Positions 2,876 through 49,100 of a DNA stretch of 64,000 nucleotides are shown here, one piece after another. The stretch is taken from the NCBI RefSeq assembly GCF_000003815.2, contig NC_049996.1, positions 14,168,374 through 14,232,373 on the forward strand, in the 5' to 3' direction. Origin of the DNA: Branchiostoma floridae. Lineage: Eukaryota > Chordata > Leptocardii > Amphioxiformes > Branchiostomatidae. The translations under genes and the position numbers were made by a program. The notes under the pieces are model-generated. The model did no database searches, was not told the DNA's origin, and saw only the letters and a list, made by a program, of their open reading frames with translations. Within the stretch, counting starts at the first letter, position 1. Each line of letters starts with the position of its first letter.

Positions 2876-3715
2876 GCTGTCCCACAAGCTAAAGGAATGT
2901 CGGACGACTCGGACCATCACCAACTCGGCCCAGTCAACTCGGCCCATCTGCCGGGACAACTCGGACCATCCCCCCTGGACAGCTATTTAATTAATTTTTT
3001 TTTCGAAAACATAATCCCCAACACTAGTTTTATATGTATATACTCTGAAATGAGAAAACTGTAGGTTGGATTGATTGGATTGAGTAATTCATCGGAAGTT
3101 TTCGGCATTCCAGGCGGCGCACATTAGGTCGTTGACCCCGAAATACGCAGCGTGTGTGGACATGTGGACATGTGTGAGGCGCTTCTAATAGAGGACAGTA
3201 GTAAACTTTATTATTACTTGCTCTTCGGAATAGCGTCCTGATTCCAAGCTGAATGTGCACTGTGAAAGTAGTGTAATAACTCATCAGTACGCTGACTAAG
3301 AAGTTAATTACTCGTCAAAACTTACCAATTGCCAATATGCCGACTTAAGAATGCTCTACGTACATACAAATGTATTAACATATTATGTATCGTGTGCAGC
3401 TTCATTTGTGTACCGCTCCGTCTTGAATGTCACAAGACGATTATCTTAGAGAGGAATGTGGTACACAATATAATTTACTGATCTTATTTCAGTAACGCTG
3501 TGGCATGTATCTGTTGAACTTGACCAACTATGCGGTGTGTAACGTTGTTAGTTCAGTAAAGATCGTAGATGTCTGTTGTTACAAAATATATAATGTTAAC
3601 TAAAGTAACTTTTCTTTATAAGTGTTAGGATTAAGACTTTCTACATGGGTCATGGGCATGTTACTTTGTCTACGTGTAGAACAGTGTTGATTTCGGTGTA
3701 ACATCGACTATCATA

Positions 3716-3982
3716 ATTCCACCAGGTGCCATAATACCGCCACCTCAAAAAATCGTTAGTATGGAGGTCATCCCAAGATTGTCTTCAACACCGAATGTTA
3801 AATATCCTAAATGTAATACACAATTCAGATATCTAGGTGTTGAAAACAATCTTGAGAAGGCCTCTGGCCCGATTTACAGGAGGCAAAAAATCAAACGACG
3901 TACGTCGTTCAAACTGCCTCGTGTAAATTGGGCCTCTGTAACAACGTTTTTGAGGTGGCGGTATAATGACACCTGGTGGAAT
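3716..3982. mobile_element. MITE-like element with ~37-bp terminal inverted repeats
   Basis: The left end attccaccaggtgccataat is mirrored at the right by its near-exact complement (ends with acctggtggaat); the arms run on through accgccacctcaaaaa. The 85-codon frame inside is not a gene. Confidence 0.7.
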
Positions 3983-4255
3983 CATGCGAATGTATGTTAC
4001 TTAGATAGTCTTGGATAGTCGGATTTGTAGCATTTATATTAGAATGGAACTCAGTTTCTATTGTTTTCTGTTCTTGTCCATGCCTAGCTTTTTGAATAAA
4101 GAAAAAGTGTCCACGATCTGCTTGTCAGTCTTTGTTTGTCTTTTCATTCTCACGCCAGATTCTGCCAAGTAGCAAACTAATAGGTCCTGGAATAGTGTTG
4201 GCCACCACACATAGTTTGCAAGTTAGCAATTGATGTATTCAGATTGATTACACTC

Positions 4256-4315
4256 ACCTGTGTTACAGGTGCATGATGAACATAATTTACCCAAATGGTC
4301 TTTTTGATATCAAAA
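4256..4315 (+). other. exon-like segment, twin of 2815-2875
   Basis: cacctgtgttacag then gtgcatgatgaacataattt, with a short frame reading NIIYPNGLF. No gene context supports either copy. Confidence 0.25.
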
Positions 4316-4319
4316 CCAC

Positions 4320-5135
4320 GAGTGAAATATGCATTTTGTATAGGTACTTTAAAAATTTGGTGGGGTGTAGGGGGGCTGGGGTGACAAGAGGCATGAACAA
4401 CAATACTAGTAGTTTCCATTCAATATTAAACCTTGTATTGAGGGGAGGGCTAGAAGAGGTCTGGGAAATTGTGGGAAAATGAACATATAATGAGAAAATT
4501 TAATTTTATTTGTATTTATTTTGTATAAGTCTCCCATAATGCGACATCGTGTTACGTGACGTCTTGCGGCACAGCCTGGCGTGGCCAGACTAGCCTTGAG
4601 GGCACCGCGGAAGGCCCTAGTTTTTTGAGACACTACATTCCCAGACAGAGAACTAGTGATCTCCTAAGCCATAGGACAGCTCAGCTCAGCGGTCCAAGGC
4701 TCGCAGTGCCAACCTATTGGAGCTGGCACCTTAAAAATGGAACATGAAGGCTGCCATTCCAGAACAAGCATGGAATGACGTAACCTCACCACACTCGTGT
4801 CTGAGACCTAGAGAAACTCCGTATAGCTTTTACTTGTGGTCCAAGAACTGGAAGGAAAGAGCAATTCCTGCTTATTCATGTAGTTTTTCTCTCATATAAT
4901 TAAAGTATGAAATACACGTAGTTCAACCCGTTCATTATATAATTTCTCGTTCTCTATGAAGATATAGAATTGGTGTTTTCATCATATATTTTATTTTCTT
5001 CTGGAGCTTTTTGTGCACATGGCTACCTGGGTAAATTATAATTTGCCGATACACCTTAAATGATTATGTGCACCTGTTGGTACCAGGTGATGAAACTTGA
5101 GATGACCTAATTATGATGTTATTTCTAAATGTCCA
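4320..5135. other. no gene recognised
   Basis: Mixed-composition sequence with short frames on both strands. I see no splice-supported exon, RNA gene or clear repeat. Confidence 0.35.
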
Positions 5136-5139
5136 TTCA

Positions 5140-5470
5140 ACCAAACCGAAAGAATCATTATGTTTGAAGAAGTCACAAAGATTTATCCCAACTTCCCCAC
5201 ATTGACAGACGAACAGAAAACCACTTTTCTCTTGAAATCGCGGAAACCTACACATTTTAGAAAAAAAATTCGTCTCCTTCTGCTTCCAAAAAAGAAGTCA
5301 AACCCAACCTGTTTAGAAATAGCCAACACTAGTATTAGAGTAGAATATTGTTTATAACTGCCCATTGTTACTTGTATAATGTCTACATCTACTATGTTTA
5401 TACCATGTACTTGCAATTAGCCCTCGGGCACGAACTTGTAAATAAACTTCTTTTCTTTTCTTTTTTTATT
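5140..5470 (+). mobile_element. LINE 3' fragment
   Basis: A short frame reads FPTLTDEQKTTFLLKS, recalling the C-terminal tails of non-LTR reverse transcriptase proteins. It is followed by an AT-rich stretch ending agccctcgggcacgaacttg and taaataaac, like a LINE 3' UTR. Heavily truncated. Confidence 0.45.
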
Positions 5471-5676
5471 AAACTGCGGTGTTTTCCTAATTACACTCCA
5501 TACCTCCAAGTGCCCGCTCTTCTTCTACAGTCATTATGACATGGCATAGACTCAGGCTACTTCTTTAGCTCAAACAGCTAGATGTAAGTTTCACAGAAGC
5601 TATTGATATCCCAACGCAATTTTTTTCAGTAATGACAACAGCAGGGACTTTATTTTTATATTATAATACTGTAAAT

Positions 5677-5867
5677 GCATGGGATTCAGTTTAGCGGTAG
5701 CGGGAAAAAGGACTTTTCGCAGTGGTTTTAAGTTCGCGGTAACACCATAGACTGCAGTCTAATACCAGTGTAGAAAAATGTTCGCGGTGGTTTTAAGTTC
5801 GCGGTTAAGTGGTCACCGTGAAAACCGCGAACATTAATCCACCGCGAACATTTCTGCATTTACAGTG
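5677..5867. mobile_element. palindromic MITE, TACTGTAAATGCA family, copy 1
   Basis: Terminal tactgtaaatgca at the left and tgcatttacagt at the right, with internal runs of gttcgcggtggttttaagtt and its complement. The same layout recurs at 8413, 41464, 50233, 56927 and 63121. Confidence 0.75.
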
Positions 5868-6011
5868 AATACAATGCAAACACTTCCCCTCATACATAGT
5901 AAACCCTGCAAGGCAGATTCAACTGCAAATATTTCCCCTTTAGAGCAAGTTCAAAAACACACAAGTGACAGCAAAAGAAGACAAAAGCATGGAAGGTTTT
6001 ACCTAAACAAT

Positions 6012-6017
6012 CTTTAT
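6012..6017 (-). terminator. candidate polyadenylation signal AATAAA (minus strand)
   Basis: AATAAA read on the minus strand with GT-rich sequence just beyond. It could end the transcript carrying the terminal exon at 7268-7469, giving a ~1.2-kb 3' UTR that would include the foldback at 6339-6544. Confidence 0.3.
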
Positions 6018-6338
6018 TGGTCAACTCTAACACATAACAATTCCTTTAAAAAAATACAATCTCCTATATTGCAAGGCAGCCATAGTTTCTCTCTCGCACA
6101 CAGCGTGGCATTGCGAAAACCGCCATGAGGAAATGACCAGCATACAACCTGCATCCCCATGCAACACATTTGCAACACATTAGCAGTATCATTATCATCA
6201 TATAACATGGTACAAAAACAGGCGGCAAGCCAGGGCCGAACAAAATATAGTTATCTCCTGAGGTCCGACCCTGGCTTTAGCGAGGAACGAGAATAAATCA
6301 CACGTACGTACGCTAAGATTCTTACGAGGTCAAAAGTT

Positions 6339-6544
6339 TGCCCTAAAGCCCCCTTTACAAATCAAGAATTTAGCTCGGCCGAGTTGTCAGCGAGCTCTAA
6401 ATTACGAGGAGGCACGACCCTGATACCTACGAACAAATGACAGAGTTTCTTCGTCGGCATCAGGGTCATACCTCCTCGTAATTTAGAGCTCGCTAACAGC
6501 TCGGCCGAGCCAAATTCTTGATTTGTAAAGGGGGCTTAAGGGCG
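6339..6544. mobile_element. near-perfect ~80-bp inverted repeat (foldback element)
   Basis: Arms begin aagccccctttacaaatcaa and its complement, and stay complementary with only a few mismatches, around a short loop. The arms include ctcggccgag and gagctctaaattacgaggag. Confidence 0.8.
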
Positions 6545-7267
6545 ACAGCGCTTCCAAAACAATTCTGCTGCGCGACAATCAAGAGCTAAAGTTTGCGAAC
6601 ACTGCTGACCTTCAGTACTTACAAGTTTTTCTACTCCAACTGCTGATGCCACAAAAAAATGCATGTAACAATTGTTTTGACTCTAGGTTAATATGTCCAA
6701 GTACCACACTTGTCTATCATCCCGTACCCCATTTTTTCAAGGCGCCCATTTAGTAATACATGGATGCAAACCCTGCTCCTAAAAATAGATGTACAAAATT
6801 ACTTTCCCATCGTTAAGTCTGCCCTACGAAATGCTCAACATCCAAAAACCATTCGGTTTAATCTCTCCCCAAGTTACAACAGTGTACAACGACTCTTCAA
6901 GGCACAGTCAGTTTGTAAAAATACCTTCTTAGTTCAACAAGCTCTACAACAATAATACCCTTCTTCAAGTTTTTCTTTGACAGGCTTTCTTCATAAGTTC
7001 TGCATCAAGAATTACATTTCATCTGCTCTACTTGCTGCTAGTTCTTTGGTCAATGCATTTGTACAAATTGTAGTACAATTATTTTTAAACACAGGCTCAA
7101 TGGTTTGCCAGACTAACTAGTGATGTACATGTCAATTTTACAAGTCAATGTGAAACGTAAGTACATTTGAACTGCATGATAAAAAAGCTGACATTACAAT
7201 TCTAACAGTACCTGCTGCAAACAGACTACTTTATAACATCTTTTTAAAGTCAAGATGACATCTATTT

Positions 7268-7469
7268 TTAACTTGAAAGTTCACCTGTGTTGGCACCACC
7301 AAAGTTCAGTAACCTCAGAAGTTTCATAACACGTACATTTTCAGTCATCCTGACATTCATCAGGACTTCTGCACTAACGGAGAGGGGCTTTGTGGATTTT
7401 TTTACCCTGGCCCAGAGGTTTTCTTCTCCAGGCTTCGACGCTAGGTTTGGTTGCTTGATGTCAGTATTC
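7268..7469 (-). CDS. possible terminal coding exon of an unidentified gene
   Basis: A ctatctcccag acceptor opens a 66-codon frame to TAA with normal-looking composition: IKQPNLASKPGEENLWARV, then SVSAEVLMNVRMTENVRVM and LLRLLNFGGANTGELSS. I do not recognise the protein. The frame enters in phase 2. The 98-codon plus-strand frame over it is then a shadow. Confidence 0.35.
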
Positions 7470-7589
7470 CTGGGAGATAGTGCGCATAATATACACGTTC
7501 TGAAAATAGTAAGGGGGTGGTTGGTTAAGTTGTGTGTATATATTTATATATTGTTTTTTCTTTCTATTTATAAGCTAAGTTAATTTGTT

Positions 7590-7815
7590 TATTTTATTTA
7601 CCTGATCAGTCATTGCCAAGGTATGCTGGTGTTTCGAAGCACCAGGTCTTCAGCTTAGCAAAGACCTCCCCTGGGGAGCACACTGTATGCATTGCTGACA
7701 GGAGTGAAAAATTATTAAGTGTTTGGGAAACTTGCTCTGATGTAGTGGGTGTGCTGTATATATAAGTCAATGTGAACATGATTTAAGTGTAGAGGTCTTA
7801 AGTGTGAAAAATTCA
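7590..7815 (+). repeat. dispersed repeat, second copy of 160-410
   Basis: Shares acctgatcagtcattgccaa, cctcccctggggagcacact and following phrases in the same order with small indels. Confidence 0.7.
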
Positions 7816-11444: not shown

Positions 11445-11700
11445 ATACACACACAGGTAATATGCCGTCCGGGAGCTGAACACCATCCACACAAGTAAAC
11501 ACTCCTGTCTTTGTTGCTGAACACCATCCACACACAGGTAAATATACCTGTTCTTGGTACTAAACACCATCCACACACAGGTAAACATATTTATCAATGG
11601 CGTTGAACACCTTCCACACACAAACACGCCTGTCCCTGTTGCTGAACACCATCCACACACATACCTGTCCTTGGTGCTGAACACCATCCACACAGGTTAA
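11445..11700. repeat. minisatellite with gaacaccatccacacacagg core
   Basis: Units of roughly 45-60 bp pairing cctgtccttggtgctgaaca with caccatccacacacaggtaa. It probably continues into the gap. A related single unit is at 12045-12090 and another near 1605-1630. Confidence 0.7.
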
Positions 11701-11704
11701 CAGT

Positions 11705-25500: not shown

Positions 25501-28500
25501 TAGGAGCATCTCTTCTCCCCAAGTCAGAAATAGGCAGCTAGACTAAATAGGCAGCTAGAGGTTACAAAAAGATTTCCTGTCTGTGTGATACAGCATCAAT
25601 GATAACCAAGAGGGAAAAAGTTTGACAGATGCACGATCATCAACTTTTACAACAAAGGTGAGACCTACCATCTTTCTTCTTGTCCGACCGCCCACTAAAC
25701 TTGGCAGCCCGACTGCTCATCTGACTCCCCCTCATGGACTGGTGGACGTGGGAGGGCGGGGCACTCAGGCTGTCCTGGCTACTCTTCACACTGGCAGCAT
25801 CTCCTCCTGGGGATCAATGTAACATGTTGTAAAGCTTGAATACACAATATTAGGCATGCAATTCTACAGCACATATAGCAAACTGATCTCCATCAAATAA
25901 ATCAACATAAAAGACTGTCTATGAGAAAGATTGGCAAAATGTACAAAGTCATGTACGTAATATGAACTGTACATTTAAAAAGCCACTATGGTACTACTTT
26001 AAGCTGTCCAAGGTATTGTGCACAAAGTCATGTACATGTGTATGTATGTTTTGTATATGCATGTGTGTGTGCATATATGTCTGTGGGTATGTCTAGATCT
26101 GTGTGTGCGTGTCTATGTTTGCAAGCACATGCATGTGTGTCTGTGTGTGCATGTACTGTACGTGTATGTGTGTGTGTGTGTGTGTATGTTTGTGTGTGCA
26201 TGTGTGTGTGTTTGTCAAAAACACACTCAGGTAATTTGATAAAGATCACTAATAGGTACAGTTTGAAATTGTTGAAAAATAAATGAATGCTGACATACCC
26301 GCTATACTGCCATCCCCTATACTCCTGACCACCAGACTCCGGTTGCTCTTCTCACTCCCAGACACACTAACACCAGCCACACTGCCGCTGCCTCTCCTCT
26401 TCCTACTGCCATCTCCTACTGACTCTGCTGTGGAAACAAAACAGTCAAGAGTCAGTCTTCTCACTCCCAGACACACTAACACCAGCCACACTGCCACTGC
26501 CTCTTCTCTTCCTACTGCCATCTCCTACTGACTCTGCTGTGGAAACAAAACAGTCAAGAGTCAGTCTTCTCACTCCCAGACACACTAACACCAGCCACAC
26601 TGCCACTGCCTCTTCTCTTCCTACTGCCATCTCCTACTGACTCTGCTGTGGAAACAAAACAGTCAAGAGTCAGTCTTCTCACTCCCAGACACACTAACAC
26701 CAGCCACACTGCCACTGCCTCTTCTCTTCCTACTGCCATCTCCTACTGACTCTGCTGTGGAAACAAAACAGTCAAGATTCAGTCTTCTCACTACCAGACA
26801 CACTAACACCAGCCACACTACCGCTCCCTCTCCTTTTCCTGCCACCATCTCCTACTGACTCTGCTGGGAAACAAAACAGGAGTGTCAAGATTCAGGCTGT
26901 AATGCAGAGTATCTGATGACAACAATTATCATGGTATTTAACAAATGAAATTTCCCAACATTTTGCCATAGGAACAAAGCAGTTACACTCAAAGCACAAC
27001 TTTTCTTATTAAAATGTGCTTTCTTCTTTGTAGAACTACGATTTGCACATGATTTAACTGCATGTTACCAAGCTTTTGATCGTGATTTAGTAGCATTTCA
27101 AACACGATTCTCATGGCTTTTGCACGAGAAAAAAACACATTTAAAACCTGGTAAAACAAGTCGGAAGGGATGTTGCTCTACATCTGTACTGTGAAAGTCA
27201 GACCTTTACCTGCCAAGTTAGCCAGGTTTTCCCCCAGGCTTGCTTGTGATGGTTGTTTCTGTGGTTTCGGTTTTGCTGCTGCTTTCTGTTCTGCCCCTCT
27301 TGGTGTCACTCCACCTCCCTTTGGAGGAAGTGTCTTTTTCGCCTCCTTTTTAGGCGGTGCAGTGTCCTCAGCAGTCGGAGGAGGGGCTTCAATCTTCTCC
27401 ACTCTCTCCCTTTTGGGAGTGGGAACTTTCCCGATGACAAATTTCTCCACTTTCTTCCCGGAGGAAGACGCCTTGGAGGCTGGAGTCTCCTTTCCTTGAG
27501 GAGCAGAAGATTTTGGCTTAGGAGTCACCACAACAGACATGCGTTCTTCTGTTCTTTCTTCCATCTCTTCTTCTTCTTCTTCATCTTCTTCATATTCCTC
27601 ATCATCTTCTTCTTCATCTACATCTATCTCATCTTCTTCATCATCCTCCTCTTCATTTTCCTCCTCCGGCTCTTCCTCTACTACTTCCCCTATCTTACTA
27701 CCGAGAGAGGAACGAGCAGAAGACTTGGAGCGCTTGCTGGAGTGTTTCTCGGATTGTTTCTCGACCGCGGCAGCCATTTTCTCCTCCTCCTCTGCTCGCC
27801 GAAGGATCTCCTCCTCATCCATCTGTACCCAGCCATGTTCATCATCATCCAGGGACTCATCTGTGGTGCCTGTGGGTTGGACAAATTAATATCAGATTAG
27901 ATGATGATGTATCTTAGAAACTTATGGAAAAGTTTTACCTGTTTTTTCTGTAGCTAGTAATTGGCTTTTTGTTAAAACATACAACTGTTACAGTAAAGTT
28001 GAACAAATCGGCCTCGTAGTAAAGATAGAATTGTCCTGAAAATTATCACAATCATTTACAATGATTGCAAAAAAAAATTATAGAAGAAATCTTATTCAAA
28101 GTATGTACAAGTCATGGTCATTATTGTTAACATGGCATGAAAGTTACTGACAATACAAAAAACAGGGTTTTTCCCAACACTATCAAAACCAAGAGCTATG
28201 TCTAACACTAGTTATAGCAGAGTTCCATAGTCTGACAAGGAGTTAAGCCAGTGCAGGTATCACATTTATGGTGCAGCATTCATTTACACCTTGAGAGTAT
28301 TGATTAATGGATAAAACATCTTTGGCAGTATTTGTACTCACTTTGCCACGGCTCGAATCCAGTGTTTGCCATGGTGGCTCTAATCTCAGGCCGCTCCTGC
28401 AGGGGGGTGCCCTTCTGGGGGGTACCCCCTCCAAGGTGGTGCAGGGGGGTTGGAGGTTCCATTGTGATGGTAGGAAGTTTCTCTGGCACTTTGTCTGACA

Positions 28501-43167: not shown

Positions 43168-46100
43168 CTGAAATTCAGAAAATTCAAGAAATGAAAACAT
43201 GATTTTAAATCATGACTTTGAATAAACTATGTCAACATATTATCAAATACTACATTGAATATCAGCTTCCAAATTTAACATACGACGAATTCTGGCTCAT
43301 TCTGCACATATATACACAATGTATACAATACACATAGATAAAAAATCTTTTTTTCACGCATTTAATGCAAGGAGGACATCATTAAATCACAATTCTTAGG
43401 ACAGATTGGCCAAATGGCTTCTCTCTTTTCATCTGCTAACATTAAATGTTACAGAAAATATAAGACATGATGCTCTTCTAGAAATTAGATATTTTGAAGA
43501 AAAATAGAACAGTGCTGATTGGTTGAACTGCTTCAGATAACCAAGATGGCTGCTCTCCTGAACAGCATGTGAAACAAAACAGCTTCATGTTTCCCCTCAC
43601 CTGTGGAGGTGATGGCCCTGGGGGGCTCCGGTCCGCAGAACTGACCAATCACAGGAGAGCCTCGATGTCTCCCATCATGCACCGCTACAAAGTCATACTC
43701 ACAGTCCACAGTAGGCTCCACGTCAAGGTCAATGAACTTCAACCTAGAAAAAGAACATCACGTCCATATATGGTACCTGTAGATGTATAATTCTTCTTAC
43801 ATTTCGTAGGAAACACTCATCCTAAGAAATTGCAGGCAACCATCCTTATCAAGTGTTCATTGTCACTCAACAATCTGATTAAGTAGTGCCCTTTAGACAA
43901 TGCTGGCCAGCTACAGCAGTTGCTAATAGTTTTTTTGAGACAGAGCCTTTAGTACACAGTCACACACACACATAGTCTCACACACACACAGTCTCACACA
44001 CACACAGAGTCTCACACACACAAACACAGTCTCACACACACACACAGTCACCCACACACACAGTCTCACCCACACACACTGAGTCTCACACACACAGAGT
44101 CTCACACACACACAGTCTCACACACACAGAGTCTCACACACGCAAACACAGTCTCACACACACACACACAGTCACCCACACACACAGTCTCACACACACA
44201 CACAGTCACACACACACACAGTCTCACACACACACACAGTCTCACACACACAAACACGGTCACACACAGACACACACAGACACAGTCTCACACAGAGTCT
44301 CACACACACACACACACAAAAAAAAACCCACACACAAACAAACACACAGTCTCACACACACAAACAAACAAACATACACACACAGTCTGACACACAAACA
44401 CATCATGTATACCAAAAATTGCTTGTACTGCTGAATTGACTGGTCAACAGTCTACATATAGCAAGATAATATATATCCCACTGAACAGGAAACATTATTA
44501 TTGCTATAGTATGACAAAATAAATAGTCCCTCCACCATCTTATCAGCAGAGACATTATGTATATGAGGGTACCATCATCATTATTTATCATCCTTTGAGG
44601 TGAAGCAAGTTAAGTTTCTCTTCCAGAACAGTCTGTCTTTAATGGCTGTGAGAAGTTCCAGTCCCTGCAGGCCAGTTTCTTCAAAGTTAGCCTTGGGCGA
44701 CCAACACGTTTCTTACAGAAAACAGGTGTCCAGAACAAGAGTTTTCCGGCTACTACGAGCCACATGGCCGGCAAGGAGTAGTCGGCATTGTTGTTAAACA
44801 ACAGGATACCATCAGTCCTACCTTATTCTGTGGTGCCTGGGCACACTGATTTTCCAGTCCTACCTTATTCTGTGGTGCCTGGGCACACTGATTTTCCAGT
44901 CGTACCTTATTCTGTGGTGCCTGGGCACACTAATTGTCTAGTTCGTTCCTAACTACTGAAACTGGAGCATAGAAGACAGAAGCCCTGGGGTGGCAGTTGT
45001 GAGTTTTAATGCTTAACGTTTCATATGCGTACAAGAAAACCCTGGGATGGGAGGGTGGGGAAAAAACGTGCAGAGTAAAAGTCACTGCATCACATCTAGT
45101 CACGTGGTATCATGGAATAAACCATCCCAGGTGTGGGGGTGCCTCTCATCCAATTACACAGGATGTCCGCTCATCCTATCACAATTGTCTAGTTCGTTCC
45201 TAACTACTGAAACTGGAGCATAGAAGACAGAAGCCCTGGGGTGGCAGTTGTGAGTTTTAATGCTTAACGTTTCATATGCGTACAAGAAAACCCGCCAAAA
45301 ACTAGAAGGAAACCGCCAACACCCAGGGCTAAGGGAACGATAAGAGCGGACACCCCGTGCAGCCGTAAGAGAGGCACCCCCGCACCCTAGAAGTATAAGA
45401 AACCAGCAGATATATACAGTATAACCCAAGGCAACAGTATAACATGATACATAACATACTTGTACCATAGGCTACAGAAATGCTAGATGAAACTTGCTGC
45501 GTAACATGGTTGATGTACAATAATGTGGCATACAACCGGTAATACCTATTGTGCACGAAGGCAACACCTAGGGTTTTGAAGACAAACATTATCGGCACTT
45601 TAAGTCTTCTGAAGTACAAGACTCTCTGGGCAAAGGCTACTGATATCAGGGCATACAAACATATATTCGCTACTATTCCGTTTAGAATCATCGATATCAT
45701 GCCGCATATTGGCAGTCTTCTGAAGTACAAGTGTTTCCGGGCAAATGCTACAAGTAGTAATGTGGCATACAACCGGTAATACCTACTGTGCACGAAGGCA
45801 ACACCTAGGGTTTTGAAGACAATTTGACAATATTCTGTGCACAGCCATAGAGGACTCAATGTAAGGGCTACGCAATTCAGCAATATGCCATCTAAATGGC
45901 ACAGCAATATCGATGTGAAAACACCGGCATACAACCGGTAATACCTATTGTGCACGAAGGCAACACCTAGGGTTTTGAAGACAATTTGACAATATTCTGT
46001 GCACAGCCATAGAGGACTAAATGTAAGGGCTACGCAATTCAGCAATATGCCATCTAAATGGCACCGCAATATCGATGTGAAAACACCGGCATACAACCGG

Positions 46101-49100
46101 TAATACCTACTGTGCACGAAGGCAACACCTAGGGTTTTGAAGACAATTGTTGACAATATTCTGTGCACAAACAGTCATAGAGGACTCAATGTAAGGGCTA
46201 CGCAAATCAGCAATATCCCATCTAAATGGCACAGCAATATCGATGTGAACACACCGGCATACAACCGGTAATACCTATTGTGCACGAAGGCAACACCTAG
46301 GATTTTGAAGACAATTGTTGACAATATTCTGTGCACAAACAGTCATAGGAACTCAAAGTAAGGGCTACGCAAATCAGCAATATCCCATCTTCATGGCACA
46401 GAAATTTTACAAGAACAAGTGTTTCCGGGCAAATGCTACAAGTAGTGTCATTTATTATGTTCGTAGAATCAAGGATTAAACATACACTGACGTCCTCAAG
46501 GGGTAAACATACACTGACGTCATCCTGCACACAGCTACAAACAGTATCGTCCCAAATATAGTCAATGTCATGAATGTATATGAAACAGCCTCCCATCTGG
46601 TCAGGCTTGCTTGCCGGTCGCACTCCGGCCACGACGACCTTTCCGGTTACAGTCCGATGCGCCGTGGTCGTACGCGGCGTCGTTGTGCTGATTCAGGCAA
46701 TTCGCGCAGATGTGGTGTACTTCCCCAAATTGCTCGTCTTCGTGAATGATCTCTGACAGGGGGCAGGACTGAGACTGAAATAATTTGCAATATTTCAGTG
46801 TCTCCTGCAGTTGGGACTGCGATTGAGAAGGGCGCTGCGTCTTCGGTGTTGTGTTGCACTGCAGGTGGGGTTGTACATGCAGCCTGTACATGTGCTCCAC
46901 GTGGTCCTTGTAACCCGAGTCGCCCCAGTCAAACTCGCCACGTTCCACCGCTCGTAACACTTCCCCATGAAAATCACGGATAGCAGGGGCCCATGGATAG
47001 CGCAGTTTATACTCAGCACACTGTTGCACCAGCTTAAGTCTCTCTCGCAACTCGACCGAACCCAACAATTCAGAAGTAAACAGCTTCATGTATCCGGCCA
47101 GGAATTGGTCCCAATTCAATACAGGGTAGGTGAGCTTGCCCGAATCACTCGAGAAGGCGGGCAATTCCTCTTGTGGCCATATCAGGTTTTTCTCAATACG
47201 GGAGGACGAGCGTGGCGTCCTAAAGAAGCCTGAAGTTAACTTCTGCTTACCTCTCTGGTCGGTTGGCTGCACGCTGGGTTTGGGTGCGACCAGTGGATTG
47301 GGGCTGGGCTTCGCCGGCTGCTCAGTTGGCGGCGCGCTGGAGAGGCCAGAGTTGGTTTGTGCGGGCGGCACGCTGGGGTTGGCTGCCGGCAAGCCGAGTC
47401 CAGGGTTTTGCCGTACGGGCTGGACACTGGGGTCGGGAAGACTGAGCTTGCCGGGGTCGGGTAGGGGTAGAACAGGCGCAGGCTGCAGACTCATGGCGCC
47501 CAGTATGCGATCAACCTCTGCGACCGCCGCGCTGTCACGCCGCAGGTCCTGGATAGTGCGCGCCACGTCGTGTGGCGAGGCTGCATCGTGTGTTACCGCC
47601 TGATCCTGAGACAGACCAGGCCGGTCCTTCGCTGACTTGTCCTTTGCCGACTCCACGTCGATAGACCAGGCCAGTCCCTGCCCCTCACGACCAGGGCCGG
47701 TTGGCGCCGATGGAGAAGCCTCTGCGGGAGGGGGGTTGAATTCCCGTCGTGCGGTCGACCGAAATTGTAACTGCACTTTCCTCCTCCGGAGGTCCTCCAC
47801 TTCCTTGGCCAACTCCAAAATCCTGATCTCCTCGAGGAGTGCCGTCCGCTCCTTCTCGAGCGCATCCTCTTCCGCCAGGGGAACGGTGCTTGGGGAACGA
47901 TCTTGTCCCTCAGGAGTTTCTGTCAAGCTGCTGGCGGGGCTCACGACAGGCCGGGCACGACCTTGTCCCTCAGGCGTGGTGGTCAAGGACGACTGGAGAG
48001 AAGTTATTTCCTCGGCCACTTTCTGTATTTCGACTTGTATGTCCGTGTCCAGAAGCCTCGCAGGCAGCTTAGCCGTCCGTTTAGGGCGTACCGATTCCAT
48101 GACATCGGCTCAAAGTGACGAAAATGACGAAGATTTTGGAAAAAACGTGCAGAGTAAAAGTCACTGCATCACATCTAGTCACGTGGTATCATGGAATAAA
48201 CCATCCCAGGTGTGGGGGTGCCTCTCATCCAATTACACAGGATGTCCGCTCATCCTATCACAATTTTCCAGTCCTACCTTATTCTGTGGTGCCCGGGCAC
48301 ACTGATTTTCCAGTCCTAGTCCTTATTCTGTGGTGCCTGGGCACACTGATTTTCCAGTCCTACCTTATTCTGTGGTGCCTGGGCACACTGATTTTACTCA
48401 GTCCTACCTTATTCTGTGGTGCCTGGGCACACTGATTTTCCATTCCTACCTTATTCTGTGGTGCCTGGGCACACTGATTTTCCAGTCCTACCTTATTCTG
48501 TGGTGCCTGGGCACACTGATTTTCCAGTCCTACCTTATTCTGTGGTGCCTGGGCACACTGATTTTCCAGTCCTACCTTATTCTGTGGTGCCTGGGCACAC
48601 TGATTTTCCAGTCCTACCTTATTCTGTGGTGCCTGGGCACACTGATTTTCCACACACAGGAGATGTCCTCTGCATAACCGTTGGGGTACCCTGGGCTGGA
48701 GAAGGAGCCTGAGCGGGGGTCCATCAGTCTGAAGTAGCAGCGTTCTGGGGGAAATTAAAAAAAAAAGAATATCTAGTTGACCACTGTGAGTTTTTTGTTC
48801 CACCTGCTTCATTGGAAGCCAAACAGATTGAGGCAAGTTTAGGTTTGTCATTTTCCTTAACATTTGTATCTTGAATGTATGTGTCATGTAGATGTTCCAT
48901 GCTGCCATTTCTACTCACGAAACAAGCTAGGTAACAAGCTAGGTAAGAACTTTAAATTATATCCTGATAACTGAGTCAGATATAGCTTTGTCCTTTAGTT
49001 ATGAAATGACCATGTGCATGTGTAAATCATATTGCAATATGCACTATCTATAACATCAAATCTCAATTTAACTTGGAAAAGCTGTTCTACTGAAAACACT

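What the first reader, a model, noticed from the sequence alone, without database searches (positions are those of the whole stretch)
44932..48265. Intact-looking split-direct-repeat (A1-ORF-B1-A2-B2) element with only a gag-like gene
Seen: two 128-bp A repeats and two 111-bp B repeats, each pair identical by eye, arranged A1, ORF, B1, A2, B2 on the ORF strand, with an unbroken 499-codon ORF. Known: this order marks PAT/Ngaro elements of the DIRS order, which integrate with a tyrosine recombinase. Inference: a non-autonomous derivative that keeps the cis ends and a gag-like protein but lacks reverse transcriptase and recombinase. A gag-only YR element is analogous to gag-only LTR derivatives and would be an unusual class.
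Basis: partly seen in the sequence, partly recalled or inferred. Interest (0 to 1): 0.85.

Follow-up and report, generated by a model that had tools for sequence, protein, structure and literature searches.

The report
Gag-only tyrosine-recombinase retrotransposons in amphioxus
A jumping gene in a (probably amphioxus) genome has kept its ends and its shell-protein gene but lost its copying and inserting enzymes, and two other families in the same genome show the same loss, so this looks like a recurring parasite-of-parasites lifestyle in a poorly studied group of retrotransposons.

Summary
On the minus strand, 48265-44932 is a 3334-nt element ordered A1 - 499-codon ORF - B1 - A2 - B2; A1=A2 (128/128), B1=B2 (111/111). 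A second full copy, 99.5% identical, sits on another contig in unrelated flanks. Genome searches settle the ORF: 21 of 47 matches to it have a tyrosine-recombinase (YR) match just downstream. Its nearest full-length relative lies in L028, a Ngaro-type element with gag, RT/RNase H and YR; homologous A and B ends are seen in L028's sister L029. It is not alone: two further gag-only split-repeat families, with gags about 25% identical, occur in this genome: L030/L031, a 2.6-kb deletion of an autonomous element (L032), and L038/L039. In L038/L039 gag has 0 frameshifting indels in 1782 sites, against 26 in 2726 elsewhere, so gag is retained by selection in a lineage without RT and YR. For the window family selection on gag is not shown (0 synonymous, 5 nonsynonymous differences). 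No autonomous partner with equally close ends was found; trans-mobilisation is inferred. New variant of a known kind.

The parts
48138..48265 (-). A1 repeat (AATT plus 124 nt from GTGATAGGATGAG)
   Evidence: identical to A2 over 128 nt; the same 5' boundary in the 15 A-bearing loci whose left end was fetched
46601..48100 (-). gag ORF, 499 aa; Pro-rich middle (by eye); C-terminal zinc-finger pattern C-x7-C...H-x-C-x2-C-x10-H-x4-C
   Evidence: 37% identity over 520 columns to the gag of L028; seven C/H positions invariant in six aligned gags (two of them, L030 and L032, close kin)
45294..46600 (-). non-coding internal spacer with a 162-bp tandem array (45764-46405); elsewhere in the genome found complete only in the sister copy, with short matches to its B1-side part in five other places
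45183..45293 (-). B1 repeat
45059..45186 (-). A2 repeat; B1/A2 junction CTAGACAATT/GTGATAGG
45043..45058 (-). A2-B2 linker; similar by eye in L029
44932..45042 (-). B2 repeat, right end ...CTAGACAATT
48263..48652 (.). 42-bp satellite flank on the A1 side (target)
44813..44942 (.). 42-bp satellite flank on the B2 side (target)

Best explanation
A non-autonomous, gag-bearing derivative of a Ngaro-type (split-direct-repeat, YR-encoding) retrotransposon. Shown: the cis architecture, two insertions with precise ends in unrelated flanks, homology of the ORF to the gag of autonomous elements, and absence of RT and YR. Inferred: its RNA is packaged with gag (its own, a relative's or both), copied by RT/RNase H supplied by an autonomous Ngaro relative using B1-A2 as the template that restores both ends, and the resulting circle is inserted by the relative's YR at a short A-T-rich core. 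Two other lineages in the same genome appear to have followed the same route independently, and in one of them the gag frame is clearly kept under selection.
For: Structure and second copy in different flanks. Ends: in the 15 loci with a readable left end (of 34 A matches) the 3 nt before GTGATAGG (one-base variants in 3) begin with A and vary (ATT 7, ATG 3, AGT 2, AAT 2, ATA 1), while all 8 B ends printed read CAATT; this is expected of YR strand exchange on a heterologous core, and in the window the satellite unit GGAAAATCAGTGTG is the empty site. Repeats agree within copies but differ between copies: C18 and C13 differ by one base that both B1 and B2 of each copy share. ORF homology; co-location with YR and RT. 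Autonomous-looking relative L028 (A1, gag, RT/RH with RVT_1 E 1e-4, YR with PF00589 E 0.0043, A2) and its sister L029 with complete B1-A2-B2. Homologous A and B ends and linker. L011, with A 86-88% and B 78-79% identical to ours, carries a YR fragment (E 3e-21) between A1 and B1. Parallel families L030/L031 with autonomous relative L032; L038/L039.
Against: No complete RT- or YR-bearing element with A/B as close as ours was found (34 A matches, 13 B matches; only the two at C13:4915k lie within 10 kb of a YR match and only the weak one at C1:24623961, not read, within 10 kb of an RT match), so the partner is inferred. Gag constraint is not visible in this family: 5 nonsynonymous, 0 synonymous differences between C18 and C13, and dN/dS 0.55 over 248 codons against the C5 copy. 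RVT_1, RVT_3 and PF00589 scores of L028 are below Pfam's cut-offs, and Pfam does not list PF00589 for the L032 YR, which rests on 42.5% identity to L028 YR. L028 has no detectable B2. No expression data.
Confidence: 0.88

Rival explanations
1. Passenger gag: the element moves in trans by its ends alone, like SIRE or MITE-type derivatives, and the gag ORF is intact only because the copies are young.
For: C18 vs C13: 17 differences in the element, and all 5 in gag are nonsynonymous. A related element, L011, is only about 1.2 kb with no gag match, though whether it moved in that form is unknown.
Against: It does not fit the other families: L038/L039, 4.8-7.9% diverged by region, keep gag open with 0 frameshifting indels in 1782 sites vs 26 in 2726 outside (Fisher P 2.5e-6; 9e-5 without the tandem array). 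L030/L031: 7 synonymous, 2 nonsynonymous (P 0.002).
Confidence: 0.3
2. Dead internal-deletion relic, with the two copies made by segmental duplication.
For: Low copy number: two full copies among the matches.
Against: Flanks differ and start exactly at the element ends; repeats agree within each copy.
Confidence: 0.04
3. Assembly artefact: RT and YR collapsed or dropped by the assembler.
For: The assembly has N gaps in some copies (C10, C5).
Against: No N in the copies of C18, C13, L030 and L031, L038 or L039; two copies of each family agree on the same internal structure.
Confidence: 0.03
4. Domesticated host gag gene.
For: Intact ORF without pol.
Against: Complete transposon ends and two insertions at unrelated sites. 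Synteny in other species was not tested.
Confidence: 0.02

Closest known systems
Ngaro-type YR retrotransposons (Ngaro-like elements with split direct repeats reported in amphioxus, PMC2632668, passages seen)
   Same: A1...B1-A2-B2 split direct repeats, gag with zinc finger as first ORF, gag, ends and linker related to L028/L029
   Different: No RT/RNase H and no YR; 3.3 kb instead of about 6 kb; a tandem-repeat spacer in place of pol
SIRE, the non-autonomous VIPER derivative in trypanosomatids (PMC6681497, passages seen)
   Same: Non-autonomous derivative of a YR retrotransposon keeping both ends
   Different: SIRE is described as 185 bp of the 5' part, about 30 bp and 220 bp of the 3' end, with no room for a gag gene
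Gag-only LTR derivatives: TR-GAG in plants (listing only; the original paper is not held) and single-ORF Copia families in Ectocarpus (PMC12477816, passages seen)
   Same: Only a gag ORF between retrotransposon ends, presumed mobilised in trans
   Different: LTRs and integrase partners there; split direct repeats and a YR partner here
PAT/TOC elements (TOC1 of Chlamydomonas, recalled, no call)
   Same: Split direct repeats; TOC1 recalled as lacking RT
   Different: DIRS-group elements including PAT are defined by a methyltransferase domain (PMC4157794, passages), not listed by Pfam for L028 or L032

Membership tests
Ngaro (autonomous element) | Split direct repeats A1 ... B1-A2-B2 | tested here: met
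Ngaro (autonomous element) | RT/RNase H ORF | tested here: not met
   No RT ORF in 44932-48265; tblastn of the L028 RT against the window gives no match at E 0.1. L028 and L032 have it
Ngaro (autonomous element) | Tyrosine recombinase ORF | tested here: not met
   present in L028 (PF00589 E 0.0043) and, by 42.5% identity over 280 aa to L028, in L032 (Pfam itself lists no PF00589 there)
Ngaro (autonomous element) | Gag-like first ORF with zinc finger | tested here: met
   seven C/H positions invariant in six sequences
Ngaro (autonomous element) | No methyltransferase domain (contrast with DIRS/PAT) | tested here: met
   Pfam scans of the L028 and L032 ORFs at E<=1 list none; in the window element there is no pol at all
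Ngaro (autonomous element) | RT phylogeny places the parent lineage in Ngaro | not tested
   No reference RT set at hand
Non-autonomous derivative of a Ngaro-type element | Ends homologous to an enzyme-bearing element in the same genome | tested here: met
   A start, B end and A2-B2 linker align with L029; closer ends in L011, which has a YR fragment
Non-autonomous derivative of a Ngaro-type element | Has transposed: precise ends, different flanks, no long target duplication | tested here: met
Non-autonomous derivative of a Ngaro-type element | Mobilised in trans by partner RT/YR | not testable with these tools
   needs experiments
TR-GAG / gag-only LTR element | Long terminal repeats at both ends | tested here: not met
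   split direct repeats, not LTRs

The most novel reading that the evidence does not exclude
Gag-only YR elements are a stable, recurrent class: autonomous Ngaro elements repeatedly shed RT and YR, and the survivors keep gag under selection because gag acts preferentially in cis on its own RNA, with enzymes borrowed. Together with gag-less, YR-keeping copies such as L029, the population would behave as a split, multipartite retrotransposon system in which capsid and enzymes are carried by different elements.
Probability: 0.35. Interest if true: 0.78.

Novelty: new variant of a known kind. Interest (0 to 1): 0.62.

Why it matters
How YR retrotransposons package RNA, rebuild their split repeats and integrate is little studied. 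Natural elements that strip the system to cis ends plus gag show which parts can be supplied in trans, and selection on gag in a lineage without enzymes suggests that gag is the part that must be supplied in cis. It also extends the gag-only lifestyle, known for LTR elements in plants and brown algae, to a retrotransposon order that integrates by a different enzyme, with apparently three independent origins in one animal genome.

Tried and rejected
Pfam scan of the ORF at E<=10: nothing. Viral contigs: no relative. Single-sequence structure prediction of ORF aa 301-499: pLDDT 45, not used and not searched. I expected the RT/YR partner among the copies with the closest A repeats; of the loci then fetched (L001-L027) none matches the L028 RT and only L011 matches its YR, as a fragment. 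L035 (gag with 56-bp direct repeats) and L037 (gag alone) do not show the A1...B1-A2-B2 order in the stretch fetched and were not counted. L036 looked gag-only in the searches but has RT and YR fragments beside an N gap and was dropped. L033 (3' truncated) and L034 (5' part missing, 3' end in an N run) were not counted as complete copies. Of the 22 gag rows without RT or YR, 15 rows (14 loci) were read and 7 were not fetched. L024 is a decayed gag relative. One paper search that included TOC1 gave mostly plant-clock papers. The first frame chosen for one gag alignment was wrong (redone). The last parts did not run (division by zero where there is no synonymous difference); one search gives that pair and the regional counts.

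Purifying-selection tests differ between families and are reported as they came: L030/L031 dN/dS 0.09 (P 0.002), L030/L033 0.15 (P 5e-5), L031/L033 0.22 (P 0.004), L030/L032 0.26, L033/L032 0.26, L031/L032 0.30, L038/L039 0.55 (P 0.045), L034/L038 0.37 (P 0.011), L034/L039 0.61 (P 0.51), C18/C5 0.55, C18/C13 undefined (0 syn, 5 nonsyn). L032 is autonomous, and L033 breaks off before the deletion point, so it may not be gag-only by descent. Copies share history, so the P values are not independent.
Full report
Where the window lies. The window is G000:C18:14168374-14232373 of a 513-Mb, 431-contig genome. A mir-2060 match points to amphioxus (Branchiostoma, probably B. floridae); that mir-2060 is an amphioxus family and the genome-size comparison are from recall, so the species is an inference.

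Observation. The described arrangement is there. Read on the minus strand: A1 48265-48138, 37-nt leader, 499-codon ORF 48100-46601, a 1.3-kb spacer with a 162-bp tandem array, B1 45293-45183, A2 45186-45059, 16-nt linker, B2 45042-44932. A1/A2 are identical over 128 nt and B1/B2 over 111 nt. The element is inserted in a 42-bp satellite array.

It is a mobile element. DNA searches, which count the window's own copies and score only the best candidates, find 34 A-repeat matches, 13 B matches, 7 spacer matches and 7 ORF matches. One other complete copy is among them, on C13 (L009: 99.49% over 3336 nt, ORF 99% in protein). Its flanks are unrelated to those of C18, and homology stops at the ends of A1 and B2. 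In the 15 A-bearing loci whose left end was fetched, the three bases before GTGATAGG (GTAATAGG or GTGTTAGG in three) begin with A and vary (ATT 7, ATG 3, AGT 2, AAT 2, ATA 1), whereas all 8 B ends printed read CAATT before unrelated flank. In the window the satellite unit gives the empty site GGAAA-ATC-AGTGTG, against GGAAA-ATT-GTGATAGG at the left and GACA-ATT-AGTGTG at the right. This is what site-specific strand exchange by a recombinase on a short, not fully matched core would leave, and is unlike the fixed-length duplication left by an integrase; the mechanism is inferred from the pattern.

Repeats are rebuilt together. C18 and C13 differ at 17 positions; two of these are the same base change at the same place in B1 and in B2. 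In C13 the only A1/A2 difference over 128 nt lies in the core. Within copies the repeats agree (A1/A2 125/125 in C18 and C13; B1/B2 111/111 in both, 109/110 in C14) while between copies they differ (B2 C18/C13 110/111, C18/C14 106/110). This is expected if the B1-A2 block is the template that restores both ends at each round (model recalled from work on DIRS, Ngaro and PAT elements).

The ORF is gag. Pfam has no match. In the genome the protein has 47 matches. With the YR of L028 as query there are 103 matches and with part of its RT ORF 88. 21 of 47 gag matches have a same-strand YR match within 8 kb downstream (1.7-2.9 kb; chance about 0.0008 each) and 22 of 47 an RT match. The nearest full-length relative lies in L028 (C13:7631300-7639300), with open frames of 537 codons (gag), 930 (RT/RNase H; RVT_1 E 1e-4, RVT_3 E 5e-4) and 298 (YR; PF00589 E 0.0043), all three scores being below Pfam's cut-offs, and A1/A2 98.3% identical over 175 nt. 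Its gag aligns with the window ORF at 37% over 520 columns (E 7e-86). In six aligned gags the zinc-type residues C, C, H, C, C, H, C are all invariant (L030 and L032 among them are close kin). L028 lacks a recognisable B2, but its 98% sister L029 has B1 and B2 identical over 127 nt around A2. A start, B end and A2-B2 linker of L029 are recognisably those of the window element.

Missing parts. No RT or YR lies in the window element. None of the loci L001-L027 matches the L028 RT. One, L011 (A 86-88%, B 78-79% identical), has a YR fragment between A1 and B1 (E 3e-21), so a lineage with similar ends once carried YR. No complete autonomous copy with ends as close as these was found: of 34 A matches only the two at C13:4915k lie within 10 kb of a YR match, and only the weak one at C1:24623961 (not read) within 10 kb of an RT match. 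Such a copy may still exist, as the searches are not exhaustive and the assembly has gaps.

Two more gag-only families. 22 of 47 gag rows have neither RT nor YR downstream. I read 15 of these rows (14 loci); 7 were not fetched. Six complete split-repeat copies emerge, in three families. Family 1 is the window and L009. Family 2 is L030 and L031 (98.7% over 3133 nt; A 120 nt, B 94-95 nt). Against L032, which has a 448-codon gag frame, RT/RNase H (RVT_1 E 2.3e-7), a YR ORF (42.5% to L028 YR over 280 aa; not listed as PF00589 by Pfam) and full repeats, they lack one large block, L032 2462-5093, from within the RT ORF to the end of the YR frame; both share the junction. Family 3 is L038 and L039 (A 173 and 175 nt, identical within each copy; B 90 of 90 in L038 and 98.9% over 91 nt in L039), with gag frames of 610 and 675 codons, decayed RT fragments in L038 (E 0.003; none found in L039) and a roughly 151-bp tandem array before B1, recalling the window element. 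Between families the C-terminal parts of the gags are 23-26% identical, and neither the elements nor the repeats match each other by blastn (best E 0.3), except that each B ends in AATT. So pol was lost at least three times (inference).

Is gag kept on purpose? Family 3: gag 1782 aligned sites, two in-frame indels, no frameshifting indel; outside gag 26 indels of frameshifting length in 2726 sites (Fisher P 2.5e-6; without the array 15 in 2029, P 9e-5); dN/dS 0.55 (P 0.045). Since both copies share the pol-less structure, their ancestor was already gag-only, so the constraint acted in a gag-only lineage. Family 2: L030/L031 7 synonymous and 2 nonsynonymous (dN/dS 0.09, P 0.002). Family 1 gives no support: 0 synonymous and 5 nonsynonymous between C18 and C13, and 0.55 against the partial C5 copy. 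For the window element, then, retention of gag for a reason is an extrapolation from the other two families.

Mechanism. Most likely the element is transcribed from A1, its RNA is packaged by gag, reverse transcribed by RT/RNase H of an autonomous relative, circularised with B1-A2 as bridge, and inserted by that relative's YR at a core starting with A. Shown: ends, insertions, gag homology, absence of enzymes, existence of relatives with open gag, RT and YR frames. Inferred: transcription, packaging, trans supply, circle. A gag-less complement exists too: L029 joins 131 nt of A1 directly to the last quarter of the RT/RNase H ORF and keeps YR and the full right end.

Known or new. Ngaro-like elements, one with a distinct split-repeat arrangement, were reported in amphioxus (PMC2632668, passages). 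SIRE, a short derivative of VIPER, is known (PMC6681497, passages). Single-gag-ORF Copia families are known in Ectocarpus (PMC12477816, passages) and gag-only LTR elements in plants (listing). In the listings and the passages read I saw no gag-only YR retrotransposon; Repbase and most subscription journals were not searched, so an entry may exist there. Hence: new variant of a known kind. By membership it is not an autonomous Ngaro element (two defining ORFs absent); it is a non-autonomous derivative of a Ngaro-type lineage.

Noticed in passing
window 45344-45386 vs 45130-45172 and 48209-48251: A 43-nt segment upstream of B1 is 79% complementary to the start of the A repeats, and a similar segment precedes B1 in L011 (by eye); it recalls the internal complementary region of DIRS elements and could pair the two ends of the RNA.
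   Followed up: partly
L029 (C1:7813900-7821700) 5056-7756: Complementary derivative: A1 fused to the last quarter of RT/RNase H, then YR and complete B1-A2-B2; lacks gag.
   Followed up: partly
L014 8100-8353: A directly followed by B (A2-B2 type) with no other element sequence found: looks like a solo A-B, the split-repeat counterpart of a solo LTR.
   Followed up: partly
L038 3266-4125, L039 about 3585-4312 (element strand), window 45764-46405: Two gag-only families both carry a tandem array of 151- or 162-bp units between gag and B1, as if filling space left by pol.
   Followed up: partly
L035 349-404 and 1931-1986 (element strand): A gag ORF of 403 codons between 56-bp direct repeats without a B pair; a different derivative or a decayed element.
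   Followed up: partly
window 11618-11701: mir-2060 match (Rfam, 70.7 bits) overlaps a 43-bp-period tandem repeat at 11475-11694, so the miRNA family may be repeat-derived.
   Followed up: no
window 26347-26879: 109-bp tandem repeat, 4.9 copies, 96% matches.
   Followed up: no
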